Assembly: GCA_013821475.1 (NCBI GenBank)
Contig: JACDGU010000008.1
Span: forward strand, 1 to 33,253
Length of the DNA: 33,253 nucleotides
Direction: 5' to 3'
DNA from: Solirubrobacterales bacterium
GTDB lineage: Bacteria > Actinomycetota > Thermoleophilia > Solirubrobacterales > 70-9
The notes under the pieces were generated by a model that worked only from the letters and a program-made list of their open reading frames with translations, did no database searches and was not told the origin of the DNA. Below, one piece after another: positions 9,807 through 27,497 of the stretch. Each line of letters starts with the position of its first letter. Position 1 is the first letter of the stretch. A program made the position numbers and the translations under genes.

Positions 9807-10559
9807 CTATCCGGCGTGCCCGGCGGCGAGGCGCCAGCTGAACAACGTGATCGCGACCGAGGTCGCGAGGTTGAGGCTGGAGACCCCCTCGCGCATCGGG
9901 ATCGCGATCCGCGCGTCGGCCCGCTCGAGCAGGCTGCCGGTCAGCCCATGGCGCTCGGTGCCGAAGGCGAGGACGGCGCGTGCCGGCAGCCGCTCGGGCG
10001 CCAGCTCCTCACCCTCGGGATCGATCGCCAGCAGCGGGCGGTCGCTCTCCGGCAGGGTCTGGATCGAGGTCACGGGCAGGGCGAAGTGCAGGCCCGCGGC
10101 GCCGCGGACGGCGTCGGGGTACCAGGGGTCGTGCTCGCCGGTGGTCAGCAGCGCCGCCGCATCGGCCGCCGCAGCGACCCGCACGCAGGCGCCGATGTTG
10201 CCCATGTTGCGCGGGTCCTCGAGCAGGACGACCGGCGCCGGTCCGCGGGCGGCGAGGACGGCGGCGACGTCGGCACGGGGACGGCGGGCGATCGCGACGA
10301 CGCCGGTGCGCGGCACCAGCGGCACGATCGCCGCCAGGGTCTCGTCGTCGATCGGCTCGACCCGCACCGCGAGGGTGCCGGCGAGATCCGGGGCCAGCTC
10401 ACTCGCCAGCGCCTCCAGCAATTCGGGGTCGACGGCGACCGCCTCGATCAGCTCGGCGCCGAAGCGCAGCGCGTGCTTGAGCGCGTGAAAGCCCTCGATG
10501 ACGGCGAGCGCCGGGTCGCGCCGGGCCCTGCGAAAACGATGGATCAGCTCGTCCCCCAC
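9807..10559 (-). CDS. SpoU/TrmH-family RNA 2'-O-methyltransferase
   Basis: 250-residue SAM-dependent methyltransferase of the SPOUT (knotted) class acting on ribose 2'-OH of tRNA or rRNA. The N-terminal part resembles the SpoU substrate-binding domain (VIEGFHALKHALRFGAELIE). Motif 1 is LLEDPRNMGNIGACVRVAAA, motif 2 AFGTERHGL, and motif 3 IPMREGVSSLNLATSVAI, with the conserved N, E and S-x-N residues all present. The start is GTG (GTGGGGGACGAG). The last codons overlap a small hairpin (GCACGC/GCGTGC). It is separated from the cyclase gene upstream by hairpins and is probably transcribed alone. The target nucleotide cannot be inferred. Confidence 0.92.
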   Translation of the reverse strand: MGDELIHRFRRARRDPALAVIEGFHALKHALRFGAELIEAVAVDPELLEALASELAPDLAGTLAVRVEPIDDETLAAIVPLVPRTGVVAIARRPRADVAAVLAARGPAPVVLLEDPRNMGNIGACVRVAAAADAAALLTTGEHDPWYPDAVRGAAGLHFALPVTSIQTLPESDRPLLAIDPEGEELAPERLPARAVLAFGTERHGLTGSLLERADARIAIPMREGVSSLNLATSVAITLFSWRLAAGHAG

Positions 10560-10680: not shown

Positions 10681-10784
10681 CTAGCGAGGGCGGGACGCGG
10701 TAGGGAGTCGGGTGGACCTCGCCAAGCCTCCCCGCAGTTCGCAGGCGAGGTCCACCCGACTCCCCCTGTGCCCGCCCCCGCTAG
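10681..10784 (-). terminator. Long hairpin directly after the cyclase stop codon
   Basis: A two-tier stem: inner perfect 21-bp arms (10703-10723 and 10744-10764; core GAGTCGGGTGGACCTCGC) and outer 14-bp arms (10681-10694 and 10771-10784, one mismatch, beginning CTAGCG). It starts at the base next to the diguanylate cyclase TAG (10785-10787). It would cap the 3' end of the cupredoxin-oxidase-cyclase transcript. No T-tract follows, so it may also be a repeat element like those near 9 kb. Confidence 0.55.
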
Positions 10785-12155
10785 CTAGGAGGAAGTGTGG
10801 ACGAGGCGGTCGCGGCCGCCCGCCTTCGCCTCGTACAGCGCCGCGTCGGCACGGCCGATCAGCTCGTCGATCGTCTCGGTGAAGTCCCAGCAGGCGAGGC
10901 CGGCGGAGCAGGTCTGCCCCTGCGGCGTCGCCTCCCGCAGCCGCTCGACGATCTCCGCCGCCTGCTCGATGCAGTCGGGGATGACGACGACGAACTCCTC
11001 GCCGCCGAAGCGGACGATCGTGTCTTCGCCGCGCAGCACCGAGTCCCAGGCGACCGCGCACTCGCGCAGGGCGACGTCGCCGGCGAGGTGGCCCTGGCTG
11101 TCGTTGTAGAGCTTGAAGTGGTCGATATCGACGATCGCCAGGCAGAGCGGCGACTGGGAACGGCGGGCCCGAGCCATCTCCCGCGGCATCTGTTCGTCGA
11201 GCGCACGGCGGTTGGGCAGGCCGGTGAGGGCGTCACTGCGGGCGAGGCTCTCGACCTCCTCGAGCAGCTCCTCACGCTCGGCCTCAATCCGCCGCAGCTC
11301 GGTGACGTCGGTCGAGCGGGTGTAGACGAGACCGTCCTCGGGGGCGAAGGCGGAGCTCGAGCGCAGCCAGTGCCAGCTGCCGTCCTTGGCCCGGACGCGG
11401 CTTTCCAGCCCGACCGACTCGGCCCCCTTGAACAGCTCGGCGGCGGCGGCGAGGGCCCGGCGGTGATCATCGGGATGGGTCAGCTCGAGCAGCATCCTGC
11501 CCTGCAGCTCATCGGATCCGTAGCCGAGCAGCTGCTTCCAGGCGCCGTTGACCTCGACGCAGCGCCCCTCACGGTCCATCGTGCTGAGCATGTCGTGGGA
11601 GAGGTCGAAGAAGCGACGGGCGCGCTGGTCGGCCTGGGCGCGGTGGGCGACGATCCGGTTGGTCAGCGCCATCACCACGGTCAGCGAGATCGCTGTGAAC
11701 AGCCAGCGCGTGAGCGGCGAGTAGCCGGCGGTGCTGGGGACGATGGCCAGCGCCAGCCCGTAGACGATCAGGATCCAGACCAGGTGGGCGGCCGCGACCC
11801 GGCGTGAGAAGTAGTAGGCCGAGATCAGCATCGACCAGACGAAGATCGTTCCGTAGACGCCGGCGGCGACGCCGCTCTGGAAGGTCACCAGACCGGTCGC
11901 CGCGGCCGTCGCGGCAAGGATCAGGTGTGTTGCCGGCAGCGGAATCCTGGCGTAGAAAGCCAAGCAGAGAACGCCGGCGAGCGCCATCGCCGTCGCCGTG
12001 ACGATCATTTCGGCGGCATTGGCGCCGCCCGGGTGCGGCAGCGCCAGCGAGAGCGCCACCAGCTCGGCGCCACCCACCAGCAGGGCCCCGGCGGCTCGGG
12101 CCTCGGATTGGCCGCTACCCCTCAGGGAAACCTGCGTTTTCGCCGTTGCCCACAT
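10785..12155 (-). CDS. Membrane PAS-GGDEF diguanylate cyclase (copy 1)
   Basis: About 456 residues. The N-terminal half has five or six hydrophobic helices forming a membrane sensor of unknown ligand. A PAS domain follows (RFFDLSHDMLSTMDREGRCV, then WLRSSSAFAPEDGLVYTRST with the PAC end). A short coiled coil (RIEAEREELLEEVESLARS) leads to the GGDEF domain. DALTGLPNRRAL, VDIDHFKLYNDSQGHLAGD and active-site GGEEF are intact, and RGED five residues before GGEEF is the RxxD inhibitory site. It should make cyclic di-GMP from two GTP with product feedback. ATG 12155 was chosen over a TTG at 12164; GGGAGG lies just upstream but very close. Paralogous to the next gene and last of a run of four co-oriented genes. 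Confidence 0.93.
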   Translation of the reverse strand: MWATAKTQVSLRGSGQSEARAAGALLVGGAELVALSLALPHPGGANAAEMIVTATAMALAGVLCLAFYARIPLPATHLILAATAAATGLVTFQSGVAAGVYGTIFVWSMLISAYYFSRRVAAAHLVWILIVYGLALAIVPSTAGYSPLTRWLFTAISLTVVMALTNRIVAHRAQADQRARRFFDLSHDMLSTMDREGRCVEVNGAWKQLLGYGSDELQGRMLLELTHPDDHRRALAAAAELFKGAESVGLESRVRAKDGSWHWLRSSSAFAPEDGLVYTRSTDVTELRRIEAEREELLEEVESLARSDALTGLPNRRALDEQMPREMARARRSQSPLCLAIVDIDHFKLYNDSQGHLAGDVALRECAVAWDSVLRGEDTIVRFGGEEFVVVIPDCIEQAAEIVERLREATPQGQTCSAGLACWDFTETIDELIGRADAALYEAKAGGRDRLVHTSS

Positions 12156-12217
12156 ACCTCCCAATATCGACTATTTTCCGGCCGGGCATTAGCCCTGCAC
12201 GCCTGAGAACGCCAGCG

Positions 12218-13615
12218 TTAGGCCTCGGCGGAGGCCGAGTGGACCAGCCGGTCGCGCCCCGCGGCCTTCGCCACGTACAGCGCGGCGTCGGCGCGGCGCA
12301 CCAGGGTCTCGGCGGTTTCCTCGCCGCTCCAGCGAGCGAGGCCGGCGGAGCAGGTCAGGCCCGGGGGAGTCACTTCACGCAGGCGCTCGACGATCTCGGT
12401 CGCCTCCTCGACGCCGCAGTCGGGCAGGACGGCGAGGAACTCCTCGCCGCCGAAGCGGGAGATCGAGTCGCCGGCGCGCAGCGCCGTGTCCCAGGCGGCG
12501 GCGCACTCGCGCAGAGCAGTGTCGCCGGCGAGATGGCCGTGCTCGTCGTTGTAGGCCTTGAAGTGATCGACGTCGACGATCGCCACGCAGAGGGACGATG
12601 CCGAGCGGCGGGCACGGGCGATTTCGCGGGGCAGCTGTTCGTCCAGGGAGCGGCGGTTCGGGAGGCCGGTCAGTGCGTCGCTGTGAGCCAGGCCCTCGAC
12701 CTTCTCCAGCAGCCGCTCACGTTCGACCTCGATCCGCTTCAGCTCGGTGACGTCCGTCGCCCTGGCGTAGACCAGGGACTCCTCGGGCGAGAGGGTCGAG
12801 CTCCAGCGCAGCCAGTGCCAGGTGCCGTCCTTTGCCCGGTAGCGGTTCTCGAAGCCGACGTGGCCCCCACCCCCGTACAGCGAGGCCGCCTCGACTTCGG
12901 TGCGCTCGCGGTCGTCCGGATGAACCAGATCGATGAACGGCATCACCAGGATCTCGTCGAGGTTGTAGCCGAGCGAGTCGGTCCAGGCACCGTTGAACTC
13001 GAGCAGGTTGCCCTCGAGGTCGCCGATCGAGAGCAGGTCGTGGGAGAGATCGAAAAAGCGGCGGGCGCGGCGGTCGGCGCGGGCGCGGTGGGCGACGATG
13101 AGGCTGGTGAAGAGGAGGACGACGGTCAGCGTAATCGCCGTGAACAGCCAGCGGGTGATCGGCGAGTAACCGGCGGTACTGGCGACGAAGGCCAGCGCCA
13201 GCGCGTAGACGCCGAGCAGCCAGACGAGATGGGCGATCGCGACCCGGCGCGAGAAGAAATAGGCCGAGATCAGCGTCGCCCAGACGAAGATCGAGCCATA
13301 CTGGCCGGCGGCGACGCCACTCTCGTAGATCAACAGGCCAGTCGTCGCCGTCGTTGCCGCCAGCAGCAGATGGCCGAGAGTCACCGGAATCCGTTCGAAC
13401 AGGATCAGACAGAGGACGCCGGCGATGGCCATCGCCACCGCCGCCACCGTCAGCGCGTAGGAGTTGCCGCCGCTGGGGTGGGGCAGCAGCAGCGAAAGCA
13501 AAACGAAGGTGGAGGCGCCGAGCAGCAGTGCACCGGTGGCGCGTGCGACAGAGCGCTCGGGAGCTCGCAGCGATGCCTGTTTCCTCGCGAACGGATTCCT
13601 CATGCCCTTCGGCAT
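12218..13615 (-). CDS. Membrane PAS-GGDEF diguanylate cyclase (copy 2)
   Basis: 465-residue paralogue with the same architecture: multi-helix membrane domain starting with RSVARATGALLLGASTFVLL, PAS (RFFDLSHDLLSIGDLEGNLL), PAC, a short coiled coil and GGDEF. DALTGLPNRRSL, VDVDHFKAYNDEHGHLAGD and GGEEF are intact, with RAGD as the RxxD inhibitory site. It should synthesise cyclic di-GMP. Similarity to copy 1 runs along the whole length, so the pair arose by tandem duplication and then diverged, most visibly in the N-terminus and PAS loop. The ATG lies 13 nt after the multicopper oxidase stop, suggesting co-transcription. Copy 1 follows about 62 nt downstream. Confidence 0.93.
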   Translation of the reverse strand: MPKGMRNPFARKQASLRAPERSVARATGALLLGASTFVLLSLLLPHPSGGNSYALTVAAVAMAIAGVLCLILFERIPVTLGHLLLAATTATTGLLIYESGVAAGQYGSIFVWATLISAYFFSRRVAIAHLVWLLGVYALALAFVASTAGYSPITRWLFTAITLTVVLLFTSLIVAHRARADRRARRFFDLSHDLLSIGDLEGNLLEFNGAWTDSLGYNLDEILVMPFIDLVHPDDRERTEVEAASLYGGGGHVGFENRYRAKDGTWHWLRWSSTLSPEESLVYARATDVTELKRIEVERERLLEKVEGLAHSDALTGLPNRRSLDEQLPREIARARRSASSLCVAIVDVDHFKAYNDEHGHLAGDTALRECAAAWDTALRAGDSISRFGGEEFLAVLPDCGVEEATEIVERLREVTPPGLTCSAGLARWSGEETAETLVRRADAALYVAKAAGRDRLVHSASAEA

Positions 13616-13628
13616 CGACCCCCTGGAC

Positions 13629-15221
13629 TCAAGCTTTAGCGGGCAGCACCTGGAACTGGCTCATCAAACCGTGATCCTCGTGGTCGAGCATGTGGCAATG
13701 GATCACGAACTTGCCGGCGTAGTCGGAGAAGTGGCCGGCGAGCAGGATCCTTTCGCCGGGATAGACGAAGAAGGTGTCCTTGAGACAGTCTTCCCACGGC
13801 GGCGGTCGCCTGCCGTCGCGCGATAGCAGGTACCAGTCGGTGTGGTGCAGGTGCATCACGTGGGCGACGTTGGTGCGGTTGTGGACTTCCCAGGTGACGG
13901 TCGAGCCGAGCCGCGGGAAGGCGTCCGAGTGGGCGGGGTTGAAGGTCCTGCCGTTGATCTGCCAGACGGTCTTGAACAGGCCCCCGATCGTGATCTCCCA
14001 CCTGTGGTCGGGCTTGCGCTTGGCCTTGCGGGTCCAGTCCGGCAGCGCTCGCAGCTTGCGCGGGACCCTGGTGCGGTCGGCGAGGCGCTCGCTGCCGACC
14101 CGGAACTGCATCAGCGCCCCGGCGTAGGTGCGCGAGCCGGTGACGTTGCGCCCGACGTGGAGCTTGGAGCTGCGCAGCTCGACCGTCTCGCCGCGGGCGC
14201 CGGCGAAGTCGACGATCACCTCCGCCCGCTCCGCCGGCCCGAGCAGGATCTCGTTGCGCCGCACCGGCATCGGCATCAGGCCGCTGTCGGTGGCGATCTG
14301 GACCATCGGCGCGCCGTTGGAGAGGTGGACGTTGTAGCTGCGGAATGGGGAGACGTTGAGCAGCCGCAGCCGGTAGCGGCGGGCGCCGACGTGGTGGTGG
14401 GGCATGAAGGCGCCGTTGACGAGCACGCTCTGGCCGACGATCCCGTCGGCGGGCGGTCGCAGGTGGTCTTCGAAAGGGTTGGTCAGCTGGTTGTGGCGGT
14501 CGAAGCTGCGCTCGGAGATCATCAGCGGGATGTCGCGCTCGCCCCGGGGGAGCGGCAGCGAGGCGTCGAACTCGTCGTCGACGATCCACATTCCCGCCAG
14601 CCCGTGCCAGCTGCGCGGCGAGGTCCGGTCGAGGCGGTGGTCGTGGTACCACTGGAAGGCGGAGCGTTCGGGGCGGCCGTCCTCCATCAGGTCGTAGACG
14701 TAGGTTTTCCGCGCCCCGGGCTCGAGCAGCAGGTCGTTGCCGGACTCGCGCGGGCTGAGGCCGCGGGGGATGTGGCAGTAGTAGGAGAGCGGCTGGGACT
14801 TGGTCAGGCCCCCGGGCTGGCCGTCGAACTGGGTGCGGTTATGTCCGCCGTGGAGGTGGACCGAGAGCTCGCCGACCCTGGCCGGCAGCTCGTGGTGGAA
14901 GGTGACCTCGGTCCGCTCGCCGGCGGGACGGCGCACGGTCGGCCCCGGGAAGCTGCCGCCGTAGGTCCAGAGCTTCGTCTTGCGCCCGGGCAGGATCTGC
15001 TGCTCGGCCTCGCGGATCGGGATCCGGATCTCGGAGTCGGTCAACTCCTCCGGAATCGGCAGGCGAGCCCGGAACGGCACCGCCGCGGACGCGCTCGGAG
15101 TCTCCCCGCCGAAGGGGAGGAGCGACTCGAGCCGGCGGCGCTGCGGCGCCAGCAGGGCCGCCGCGCCGCCGCCGAGGGCGCCGAGGAAAGCTCGGCGCCC
15201 CAGGCGGGGCGTGCCTGGCAA
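13629..15221 (-). CDS. Tat-exported multicopper oxidase (CotA/bilirubin-oxidase type)
   Basis: 530-residue three-domain oxidase that couples oxidation of phenols or metal ions to reduction of O2 to water, outside the membrane. A twin-arginine signal (GRRAFLGALGGG, residues 8-19) opens the protein. All four copper motifs are present: HLHGGH (H122, H124), WYHDH (H193, H195), HVMHLH, and HCHMLDHEDHGLM (residues 508-520) with C509 as the type-1 ligand. At the axial position, where CotA has Met (Cys+10), this protein has L519, with M520 next. The start is a TTG, the only in-frame option after the upstream stop; GAGAAG sits unusually close to it. It begins 15 nt after a cupredoxin gene, a likely electron-transfer or copper partner. 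The substrate is unknown. Confidence 0.93.
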   Translation of the reverse strand: MPGTPRLGRRAFLGALGGGAAALLAPQRRRLESLLPFGGETPSASAAVPFRARLPIPEELTDSEIRIPIREAEQQILPGRKTKLWTYGGSFPGPTVRRPAGERTEVTFHHELPARVGELSVHLHGGHNRTQFDGQPGGLTKSQPLSYYCHIPRGLSPRESGNDLLLEPGARKTYVYDLMEDGRPERSAFQWYHDHRLDRTSPRSWHGLAGMWIVDDEFDASLPLPRGERDIPLMISERSFDRHNQLTNPFEDHLRPPADGIVGQSVLVNGAFMPHHHVGARRYRLRLLNVSPFRSYNVHLSNGAPMVQIATDSGLMPMPVRRNEILLGPAERAEVIVDFAGARGETVELRSSKLHVGRNVTGSRTYAGALMQFRVGSERLADRTRVPRKLRALPDWTRKAKRKPDHRWEITIGGLFKTVWQINGRTFNPAHSDAFPRLGSTVTWEVHNRTNVAHVMHLHHTDWYLLSRDGRRPPPWEDCLKDTFFVYPGERILLAGHFSDYAGKFVIHCHMLDHEDHGLMSQFQVLPAKA

Positions 15222-15236
15222 CTTCTCAGCCGTGGG

Positions 15237-15827
15237 CTAGACGCCCGGGACGCCGACCGTCGGCGCCTTGACCTGGATCTTGCCCTGCATCCAGGGATGG
15301 ACGGCACACATGAAGTAGAGCGTGCCCGCATTCGCCGAGACCACCTGGGTCAGCGACGATCCTTTCTTCTGCGTGAACCAGGAATCGCCGGTCTTGGCGA
15401 TCGTGCCCATCGTGCTCCAGCCTTCGGGACCGGCTTCGGAGGGGTTGATGCTCGGCGGTTCTTCGCCGTGCGCACCCTGCCATTTGGCGATCGAGAGGCA
15501 GATGTGTGTCGGCGTGAAGCAGCTTTTCCGCGCCGGCGGAGTCTTCGGCAACGAGCCCTTGGTGACCAGCGAGAAGGTGTGCGGGCCGACCTGTTTCGGG
15601 TTCGTGTCATTGACGATTTCGAGTTCGTCGCCCTGGGTGACGCTGCTCGGCGCTTCGAACTTGAGCTTACCTTTGACGAGGACGATGTGGATCGTGTCGG
15701 TCACCCCCGTCGGCGTCACCGCCGCGTCGGCGATGGCCGGTGCGACGAGCAACGACAGCGCGGCGGCGACCGGGACGGCGAGCACGAGTGCCCGGAGCGA
15801 AGCCGAGCGGTTGAGCCTTTTTCGCAA
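15237..15827 (-). CDS. Exported cupredoxin-domain protein
   Basis: About 196 residues. A signal peptide (RSASLRALVLAVPVAAALSL then APAIADA) precedes a beta-sandwich-like domain. Type-1 copper ligands are visible: H in VGPHTFSLV, then C, H and M in MCAVHPWMQG (CxxHxxM spacing as in plastocyanin-like proteins). An extra pair of cysteines (KSCFTPTHICLS) could form a disulphide in an insert between the first His and the rest. The TTG at 15827 has a good ribosome-binding site (AGAAAGG, 6 nt spacing). A longer frame from a TTG at 15908 would put a charged, non-signal sequence first and is less likely. It leads the run with the multicopper oxidase and cyclases and probably donates electrons or copper. 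Confidence 0.83.
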   Translation of the reverse strand: MRKRLNRSASLRALVLAVPVAAALSLLVAPAIADAAVTPTGVTDTIHIVLVKGKLKFEAPSSVTQGDELEIVNDTNPKQVGPHTFSLVTKGSLPKTPPARKSCFTPTHICLSIAKWQGAHGEEPPSINPSEAGPEGWSTMGTIAKTGDSWFTQKKGSSLTQVVSANAGTLYFMCAVHPWMQGKIQVKAPTVGVPGV

Positions 15828-15955
15828 GAGATGCCTTTCTGAGCCAGATTTGGACGAACCAAGGCGGACGAGGCGTTGCAAACTAGTAAACGCTTGTGCC
15901 CAAATCAAGAGCCCGTCCGAAAGCTGTGCATCGCCTGTAGCCTGGTCTGGAGCCG

Positions 15956-27077: not shown

Positions 27078-27497
27078 TCAGTCCTTGGCGACGACTTCGA
27101 CGGTGCCGTGCATTGTCGGGTGGACTTCGCAGAAGTAGGTGTAGGTGCCGGCCTGCTTGAAGGTCGCGGACTTGAGCTTGCCGTTGGCGAGGATGCCGGT
27201 GTTGAAGCTGCCGTCGTCGGCGGTCGCCGTGTGGGGGGCGGCGTCCTGGTTGAGCCAGGTCACCTTGCCGCCGACCTGGACGATGACCGGGTCGGGGCCG
27301 TAGGTGAATTCGACGATTTCGACCTTTTCCGAGCGCCCCGCGGCGCCGCTGGGCGCCGTTTCACTGCCGCTGGAGTCGGAGGTGGACGGACCGGCGGAGC
27401 CGGATTCGGTCGAGGAATTGCCCGATCCGCCGCCGCAGGCAGCAAAGGCAATGGAGAGCGCAATCAGCGCCGGCGCGAGGAGTGCTTTCGTCTTCAT
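27078..27497 (-). CDS. Cupredoxin lipoprotein (plastocyanin-like)
   Basis: About 139 residues. A lipoprotein signal is evident (LLAPALIALSIAFAAC, lipobox FAAC), so the mature protein is tethered by a lipidated Cys to the outer face of the membrane. A Ser/Gly/Glu linker follows. The copper domain (EIVEFTYGPDPVIVQVGGKV) has ligands H in AAPHTATAD and C, H, M in YFCEVHPTMHGTV. It resembles amicyanin/plastocyanin-type electron carriers. The ATG is at 27497; a GTG at 27500 is one codon further up. An 82-residue basic protein follows after 4 nt. It is divergent from the MMPL transporter, 95 nt away. Redox partner unknown. Confidence 0.9.
   Translation of the reverse strand: MKTKALLAPALIALSIAFAACGGGSGNSSTESGSAGPSTSDSSGSETAPSGAAGRSEKVEIVEFTYGPDPVIVQVGGKVTWLNQDAAPHTATADDGSFNTGILANGKLKSATFKQAGTYTYFCEVHPTMHGTVEVVAKD

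What the first reader, a model, noticed from the sequence alone, without database searches (positions are those of the whole stretch)
10681..15827. Cupredoxin - multicopper oxidase - twin diguanylate cyclase operon
Four co-oriented genes with gaps of 15, 13 and about 60 nt, closed by a long hairpin. Seen: exported type-1 copper protein, Tat multicopper oxidase and two full-length paralogous membrane PAS-GGDEF cyclases with intact GGEEF and RxxD sites. Known: such cyclases make c-di-GMP; multicopper oxidases act outside the membrane. Inference: the operon could couple extracellular copper or redox chemistry to c-di-GMP signalling, with cupredoxin and oxidase as output or sensor input. I know of no described system with this exact gene set.
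Basis: partly seen in the sequence, partly recalled or inferred. Interest (0 to 1): 0.65.

Follow-up and report, generated by a model that had tools for sequence, protein, structure and literature searches.

The report
Copper oxidase pair with passenger cyclases
Four genes in a soil actinobacterium really do sit in one likely operon, but comparison with relatives shows that the two copper proteins form an old, mobile pair while the two signalling enzymes beside them come and go independently, so a copper-to-signal circuit is unlikely.

Summary
On the minus strand lie an exported type-1 copper protein (CUP), a Tat multicopper oxidase (MCO) and two 6-TM/PAS/GGDEF cyclases (DGC1, DGC2; 66% identical), with gaps of 15, 13 and 62 nt and a perfect 21-nt inverted repeat downstream. 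The hairpin has no U-tract and belongs to a dispersed repeat of this genome. In four relatives the last gene runs on into a SpoU methyltransferase after 10-29 nt, so the hairpin does not close the ancestral operon.

Twelve genomes of the genus and 399 of the class separate the parts. CUP-MCO is an order-level unit: CUP lies directly upstream of MCO wherever the contig allows (13/13 in the class sample). The cyclase joins it only in this genus and is gained or lost independently of MCO; the twin occurs only here. In one clade MCO has left the locus and CUP has lost three of four copper ligands (His, Cys, Met), yet stays under purifying selection, whether or not a cyclase adjoins. Copper chemistry tracks MCO, not the cyclase. 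The cyclase sensor is a generic 6-TM domain (27 of 128 class genera).

Best reading: oxidase-electron-carrier pair with co-transcribed passenger cyclases; copper/c-di-GMP coupling disfavoured, not excluded.

The parts
15237..15827 (-). CUP: exported single-domain cupredoxin with an amicyanin-type CxxHPxM loop and intact His/Cys/His/Met type-1 ligands
   Evidence: ligand table; AlphaFold2 pLDDT 87; Foldseek: plastocyanin, auracyanin, amicyanin; no Pfam family matched
13629..15221 (-). MCO: Tat-exported three-domain multicopper oxidase of the CotA/bilirubin-oxidase kind, with axial Leu (L519) at the type-1 copper
   Evidence: L519 aligned to the axial-Met column of CotA and 8z59
12218..13615 (-). 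DGC1: 6-TM + PAS + GGDEF cyclase, GGEEF, RAGD I-site
10785..12155 (-). DGC2: paralogous 6-TM + PAS + GGDEF cyclase, GGEEF, RGED I-site; start ATG 12155 (TTG 12164 possible)
10703..10764 (.). Perfect 21-nt inverted repeat with 20-nt loop; member of a dispersed palindromic repeat specific to this genome, without U-tract
9807..10559 (-). SpoU-family RNA methyltransferase; next gene of the ancestral operon (10-29 nt behind the cyclase in G001, G003, G007, G009; 225 nt here)
15828..15955 (-). Intergenic region shared with the divergent VOC gene (15956 +); presumed site of the operon promoter (inference; no sigma-70 consensus found)

Best explanation
The functional core is an exported cupredoxin-multicopper oxidase pair. 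The Tat-exported MCO, with an axial-Leu and so probably high-potential type-1 copper, oxidises an unidentified reduced substrate outside the membrane and reduces O2 to water; the secreted cupredoxin shuttles electrons to or from it. The cyclase is a generic membrane c-di-GMP synthase gained downstream of this pair near the base of the genus, co-transcribed by position and not needed by the pair. In this species it exists as two diverged tandem copies, and a genome-specific palindromic repeat lies in the gap before SpoU. Shown: gene content, motifs, order, conservation, independent loss, copper-ligand loss tracking MCO loss. Inferred: co-transcription, the electron-transfer role, the high potential, and the lack of coupling.
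For: CUP lies directly upstream of, and co-oriented with, the MCO ortholog in 13 of 13 class-sample genomes where contigs allow (G014, G017, G025, G026, G044, G060, G210 and genus members), at several different genomic places. GGDEF lies within 10 kb of the MCO in 5 of 79 named loci: 3 of this genus and 2 Thermocrispum loci with a distant MCO. At the conserved locus MCO and DGC presence are not associated (both 4, MCO only 1, DGC only 3, neither 3; Fisher P 0.55). Three of four CUP copper ligands are lost in 6/6 MCO-less syntenic loci and in 0/6 MCO-bearing ones, regardless of DGC. The DGC TM domain occurs in 52 of 399 class genomes and 27 genera, by coordinates never beside CUP-MCO outside the genus.
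Against: The cyclase has been kept beside CUP or MCO in 7 of the 11 genus genomes where its presence can be judged, with short gaps and intact catalytic motifs, so shared expression may be selected. The copper-ligand loss is one event on the tree (clade support 100), so it is a single natural experiment. Holo CUP without an adjacent MCO exists (G003 C20, G005 C67, G030), so CUP does not strictly need a neighbouring MCO. The MCO substrate and the CUP-MCO interaction are untested.
Confidence: 0.62

Rival explanations
1. Copper or redox coupled c-di-GMP module: CUP/MCO activity or copper state outside the membrane is sensed by the two 6-TM cyclases, or c-di-GMP controls CUP/MCO output.
For: Tight co-oriented gene order kept in G000, G003, G009 and G001; intact GGEEF and I-sites; precedent for a c-di-GMP enzyme in a metal operon: Urf2 phosphodiesterase of the Tn501 mer operon (PMC6629876).
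Against: DGC persists with copper-ligand-less CUP and no MCO at the locus in G002, G005 and G007; MCO persists without DGC in G004 and in all other genera examined; the sensor domain is generic; loops between TM helices are about 10 residues or fewer in the model.
Confidence: 0.12
2. Copper homeostasis locus: CUP stores or delivers copper and MCO is a CueO-like cuprous oxidase; the cyclases signal envelope stress.
For: NCBIfam's best match for MCO is the CueO model, though far below cut-off (194 of 525 bits).
Against: No copper exporter, CsoR/CueR regulator or copper chaperone among the window genes scanned with Pfam; no Met-rich insert seen in the MCO sequence; closest solved structures are bilirubin oxidase and CotA, ahead of CueO; CUP has a type-1 electron-transfer ligand set.
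Confidence: 0.15
3. Envelope or matrix co-expression: c-di-GMP and MCO act on the same process (for example cross-linking of matrix or pigment) without direct signalling between them, which is why they share an operon in this genus.
For: Position next to a class-A PBP, with BacA and a PcsB-like coiled-coil protein nearby; both products act at the envelope.
Against: Cyclase and MCO are lost independently; no matrix genes in the block.
Confidence: 0.11

Closest known systems
CotA / bilirubin-oxidase type multicopper oxidases (PDB 1gsk, 8z59, 7z5p)
   Same: Three-domain architecture, all four copper-ligand motifs, best profile matches in the PDB
   Different: Leu in place of the axial Met (in 15 of 16 homologs aligned), Tat signal, cupredoxin gene always upstream; no close solved relative
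Amicyanin/plastocyanin/auracyanin cupredoxins
   Same: Predicted cupredoxin fold (Foldseek E 6e-6 to plastocyanin 1baw, TM by target 0.66), CxxHPxM loop as in amicyanin
   Different: Longer, with a conserved extra Cys pair between the first His and the Cys ligand; below every Pfam threshold
Membrane PAS-GGDEF diguanylate cyclases with MASE-type N-termini
   Same: Six predicted TM helices, PAS, GGDEF with GGEEF and RxxD
   Different: The TM domain matches no Pfam MASE family; it is a class-wide unnamed domain
Urf2/Mrp phosphodiesterase in the Tn501 mercury operon (PMC6629876)
   Same: A c-di-GMP enzyme carried in an operon with metal-related genes
   Different: Phosphodiesterase, not cyclase; mercury resistance; proteobacterial transposon

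Membership tests
Three-domain multicopper oxidase | Four His-rich copper-ligand motifs (HxHG, HxH, HxxHxH, HCHxxxH) | tested here: met
   HLHG, HDH, HVMHLH, HCHMLDH, conserved in the orthologs
Three-domain multicopper oxidase | Pfam Cu-oxidase_2 and Cu-oxidase_3 above gathering score | tested here: met
   76 and 53 bits against cut-offs 20.4 and 21
CueO (NF008205) | Score above the family cut-off | tested here: not met
   193.9 bits against 525
Type-1 copper protein (cupredoxin) | His, Cys, His, Met ligand set and cupredoxin fold | tested here: met
   Ligands; fold by AlphaFold2 and Foldseek
Pfam Copper-bind / amicyanin (TIGR02657) | Score above the family cut-off | tested here: not met
   No Pfam match for the window protein; amicyanin 16.8 bits against 110.2
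Diguanylate cyclase | GG(D/E)EF signature and RxxD I-site | tested here: met
   GGEEF and RxxD in both copies
Diguanylate cyclase | Makes c-di-GMP | not testable with these tools
   Needs an enzyme assay
MASE-type membrane sensor | Match to a named MASE family in Pfam | tested here: not met
   only a chance-level DUF3093 match
Copper-coupled c-di-GMP system | Cyclase and copper proteins inherited together | tested here: not met
   Independent presence and absence in the genus; no cyclase beside CUP-MCO in other genera
Intrinsic terminator | GC-rich hairpin followed by a U-run | tested here: not met
   Hairpin yes, U-run no; dispersed repeat

The most novel reading that the evidence does not exclude
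The cupredoxin-fold protein is an envelope partner of the 6-TM cyclase, with a copper-dependent form (this species, MCO present) and a copper-free form (G002/G005/G007, where three ligands are lost but the gene stays under purifying selection beside the cyclase), so the locus would show a cupredoxin turned into a metal-free signal protein.
Probability: 0.06. Interest if true: 0.65.

Novelty: new member of a known kind. Interest (0 to 1): 0.3.

Why it matters
The case shows how an attractive operon-based function can be taken apart by comparison: co-orientation and 13-nt gaps are real, yet the parts have separate histories. The useful by-product is a natural experiment: a cupredoxin that loses three of four copper ligands in the clade where its oxidase neighbour is gone, yet remains conserved. 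That ties this unnamed cupredoxin family to its oxidase and makes its electron-partner role directly testable.

Tried and rejected
Hairpin as terminator: rejected (no U-run, dispersed repeat). Hairpin as REP/REPIN mobilised by a RAYT (Y1_Tnp) transposase: no such gene found in this 90%-complete genome. Rfam: no family matched in the window. Assembly artefact for the twin cyclases: rejected, the copies are only 66% identical, 58% in PAS. Recent tandem duplication: not clearly supported. DGC2 groups with the single G003 cyclase (92) and DGC1 falls outside, while the TM domain groups both copies with G003 (89); this suggests an older duplication with loss elsewhere plus some homogenisation, but several nodes are weak. 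Conserved His of the TM domain as a dedicated copper site: rejected, LPH recurs in other members of the TM family. Degenerate CUP as pseudogene: rejected, dN/dS 0.14-0.34 against 0.19-0.45 in holo CUP.

Full report
What is there. The four genes are on the minus strand, at the stated coordinates, with gaps of 15, 13 and 62 nt. CUP has a signal peptide and the type-1 set His...Cys-x2-His-x2-Met; MCO carries an RRAFLG Tat motif and all four copper-ligand motifs; both cyclases have PAS, GGEEF and RxxD. AlphaFold2 gives CUP a confident cupredoxin fold (pLDDT 87; Foldseek best plastocyanin, E 6e-6) and DGC1 six N-terminal TM helices with short loops, then PAS and GGDEF (the DGC model is weaker, pTM 0.41). 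The genome is a 2.7-Mb, 90%-complete draft with 17 GGDEF matches; its nearest named relatives are Solirubrobacterales MAGs.

The hairpin. The inverted repeat is perfect and very stable, but its arm recurs 19 times in the genome with up to 3 mismatches (control 1), in places as an inverted pair and often at contig ends, and is nearly absent from the other 11 genomes of the genus (0-1 hits each with up to 1 mismatch). No U-run follows it. In G003, G009, G001 and G007 the cyclase is followed by the SpoU methyltransferase after 29, 10, 10 and 13 nt, while here the gap is 225 nt and holds the repeat. The simplest reading is that a genome-specific palindromic repeat lies within an older, longer operon; it may still affect mRNA 3' ends.

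The comparison that decides. Twelve genomes of the genus are held. Where contigs allow, they share the frame PBP1A / VOC / CUP / ... / SpoU. Between CUP and SpoU lie: MCO-DGC1-DGC2 (G000); MCO-DGC (G003, G009, and G001 across a contig break); MCO alone (G004); DGC alone (G002, G005, G007); nothing (G006, G008, G011). G010 is cut off inside MCO. The outgroup G026 has CUP-MCO without DGC. So CUP-MCO is older than the cyclase, which entered at or before the base of the genus and was lost more than once (tree from 11 flanking proteins; deep nodes 65-76% support). MCO and DGC presence are not associated (Fisher P 0.55; counts not phylogenetically independent).

Copper ligands. In all CUPs beside an MCO whose ligand region is complete, the four ligands are intact. 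In the six syntenic loci without MCO, His is Val or Phe, Cys is Asp and Met is Leu or Val, whether a cyclase is present (G002, G005, G007) or not (G006, G008, G011). These six form one clade (support 100), so this is one event. The degenerate proteins are not pseudogenes: dN/dS 0.14-0.34. G007 and G008 carry a second, holo CUP directly upstream of an MCO elsewhere in the genome, without a cyclase. The copper pair therefore occurs as a unit at different places, and CUP's copper follows MCO rather than the cyclase.

Wider survey. In 399 genomes of the class every close MCO ortholog (14 genomes) has CUP directly upstream, except G001 where the contig ends. Of 79 named MCO loci with up to 10 kb flanks, 5 have a GGDEF gene: three are this genus; two are Thermocrispum, about 3 kb away and with an MCO of 37-38% identity. 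The TM sensor of the cyclases is found in 52 of the 399 genomes and 27 genera, and by coordinates never beside CUP-MCO outside the genus. A genome with 17 GGDEF genes has one within 10 kb of a random point about 12% of the time.

Mechanism. The best-supported role is an extracellular oxidase with its own cupredoxin electron partner. The position of the axial Met in CotA and in 8z59 is Leu here and in 15 of 16 aligned homologs; hydrophobic axial residues raise the type-1 potential in laccases (PMC6487685). The substrate is unknown. The cyclases look like ordinary membrane c-di-GMP synthases; in Thermoleophilia one possible receiver is the single-motif RsiG anti-sigma (PMC8325347), which was not searched for here.

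Limits. Genomes are drafts; presence and absence was judged only where the contig spans CUP to SpoU. Gene starts in this GC-rich genome are uncertain. No expression data exist. Literature was searched only in the open-access library.

Noticed in passing
window 10703-10764; also G000 contigs C2, C5, C19, C42, C56, C68, C108, C135, C192: Dispersed palindromic repeat (arm GGGAGTCGGGTGGACCTCGCC) specific to this genome within the genus, often at contig ends; no RAYT transposase found.
   Followed up: partly
L091, L092, L093, L121, L122, L123 (CUP genes): Cupredoxin homologs that have lost three of four type-1 copper ligands (His to Val/Phe, Cys to Asp, Met to Leu/Val) but remain under purifying selection.
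   Followed up: yes
window 13066-13615 and 11612-12155 (minus): Unnamed 6-TM sensor domain of GGDEF proteins, with a recurring LPH motif in the first loop, in 27 of 128 Thermoleophilia genera sampled and matching no Pfam family.
   Followed up: partly
window 27081-27497 (minus): A second, separate plastocyanin-type cupredoxin (Pfam Copper-bind) about 11 kb from the operon.
   Followed up: no
L083 and L084 (G007, G008): Second CUP-MCO pair at another genomic place in members of the clade whose syntenic CUP lost its copper ligands.
   Followed up: partly
window 12218-13615 and 10785-12155: PAS domains of DGC1 and DGC2 belong to different sub-lineages (DGC1 nearer G009/G001) while their TM domains group together, suggesting gene conversion or domain exchange between the tandem copies.
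   Followed up: partly
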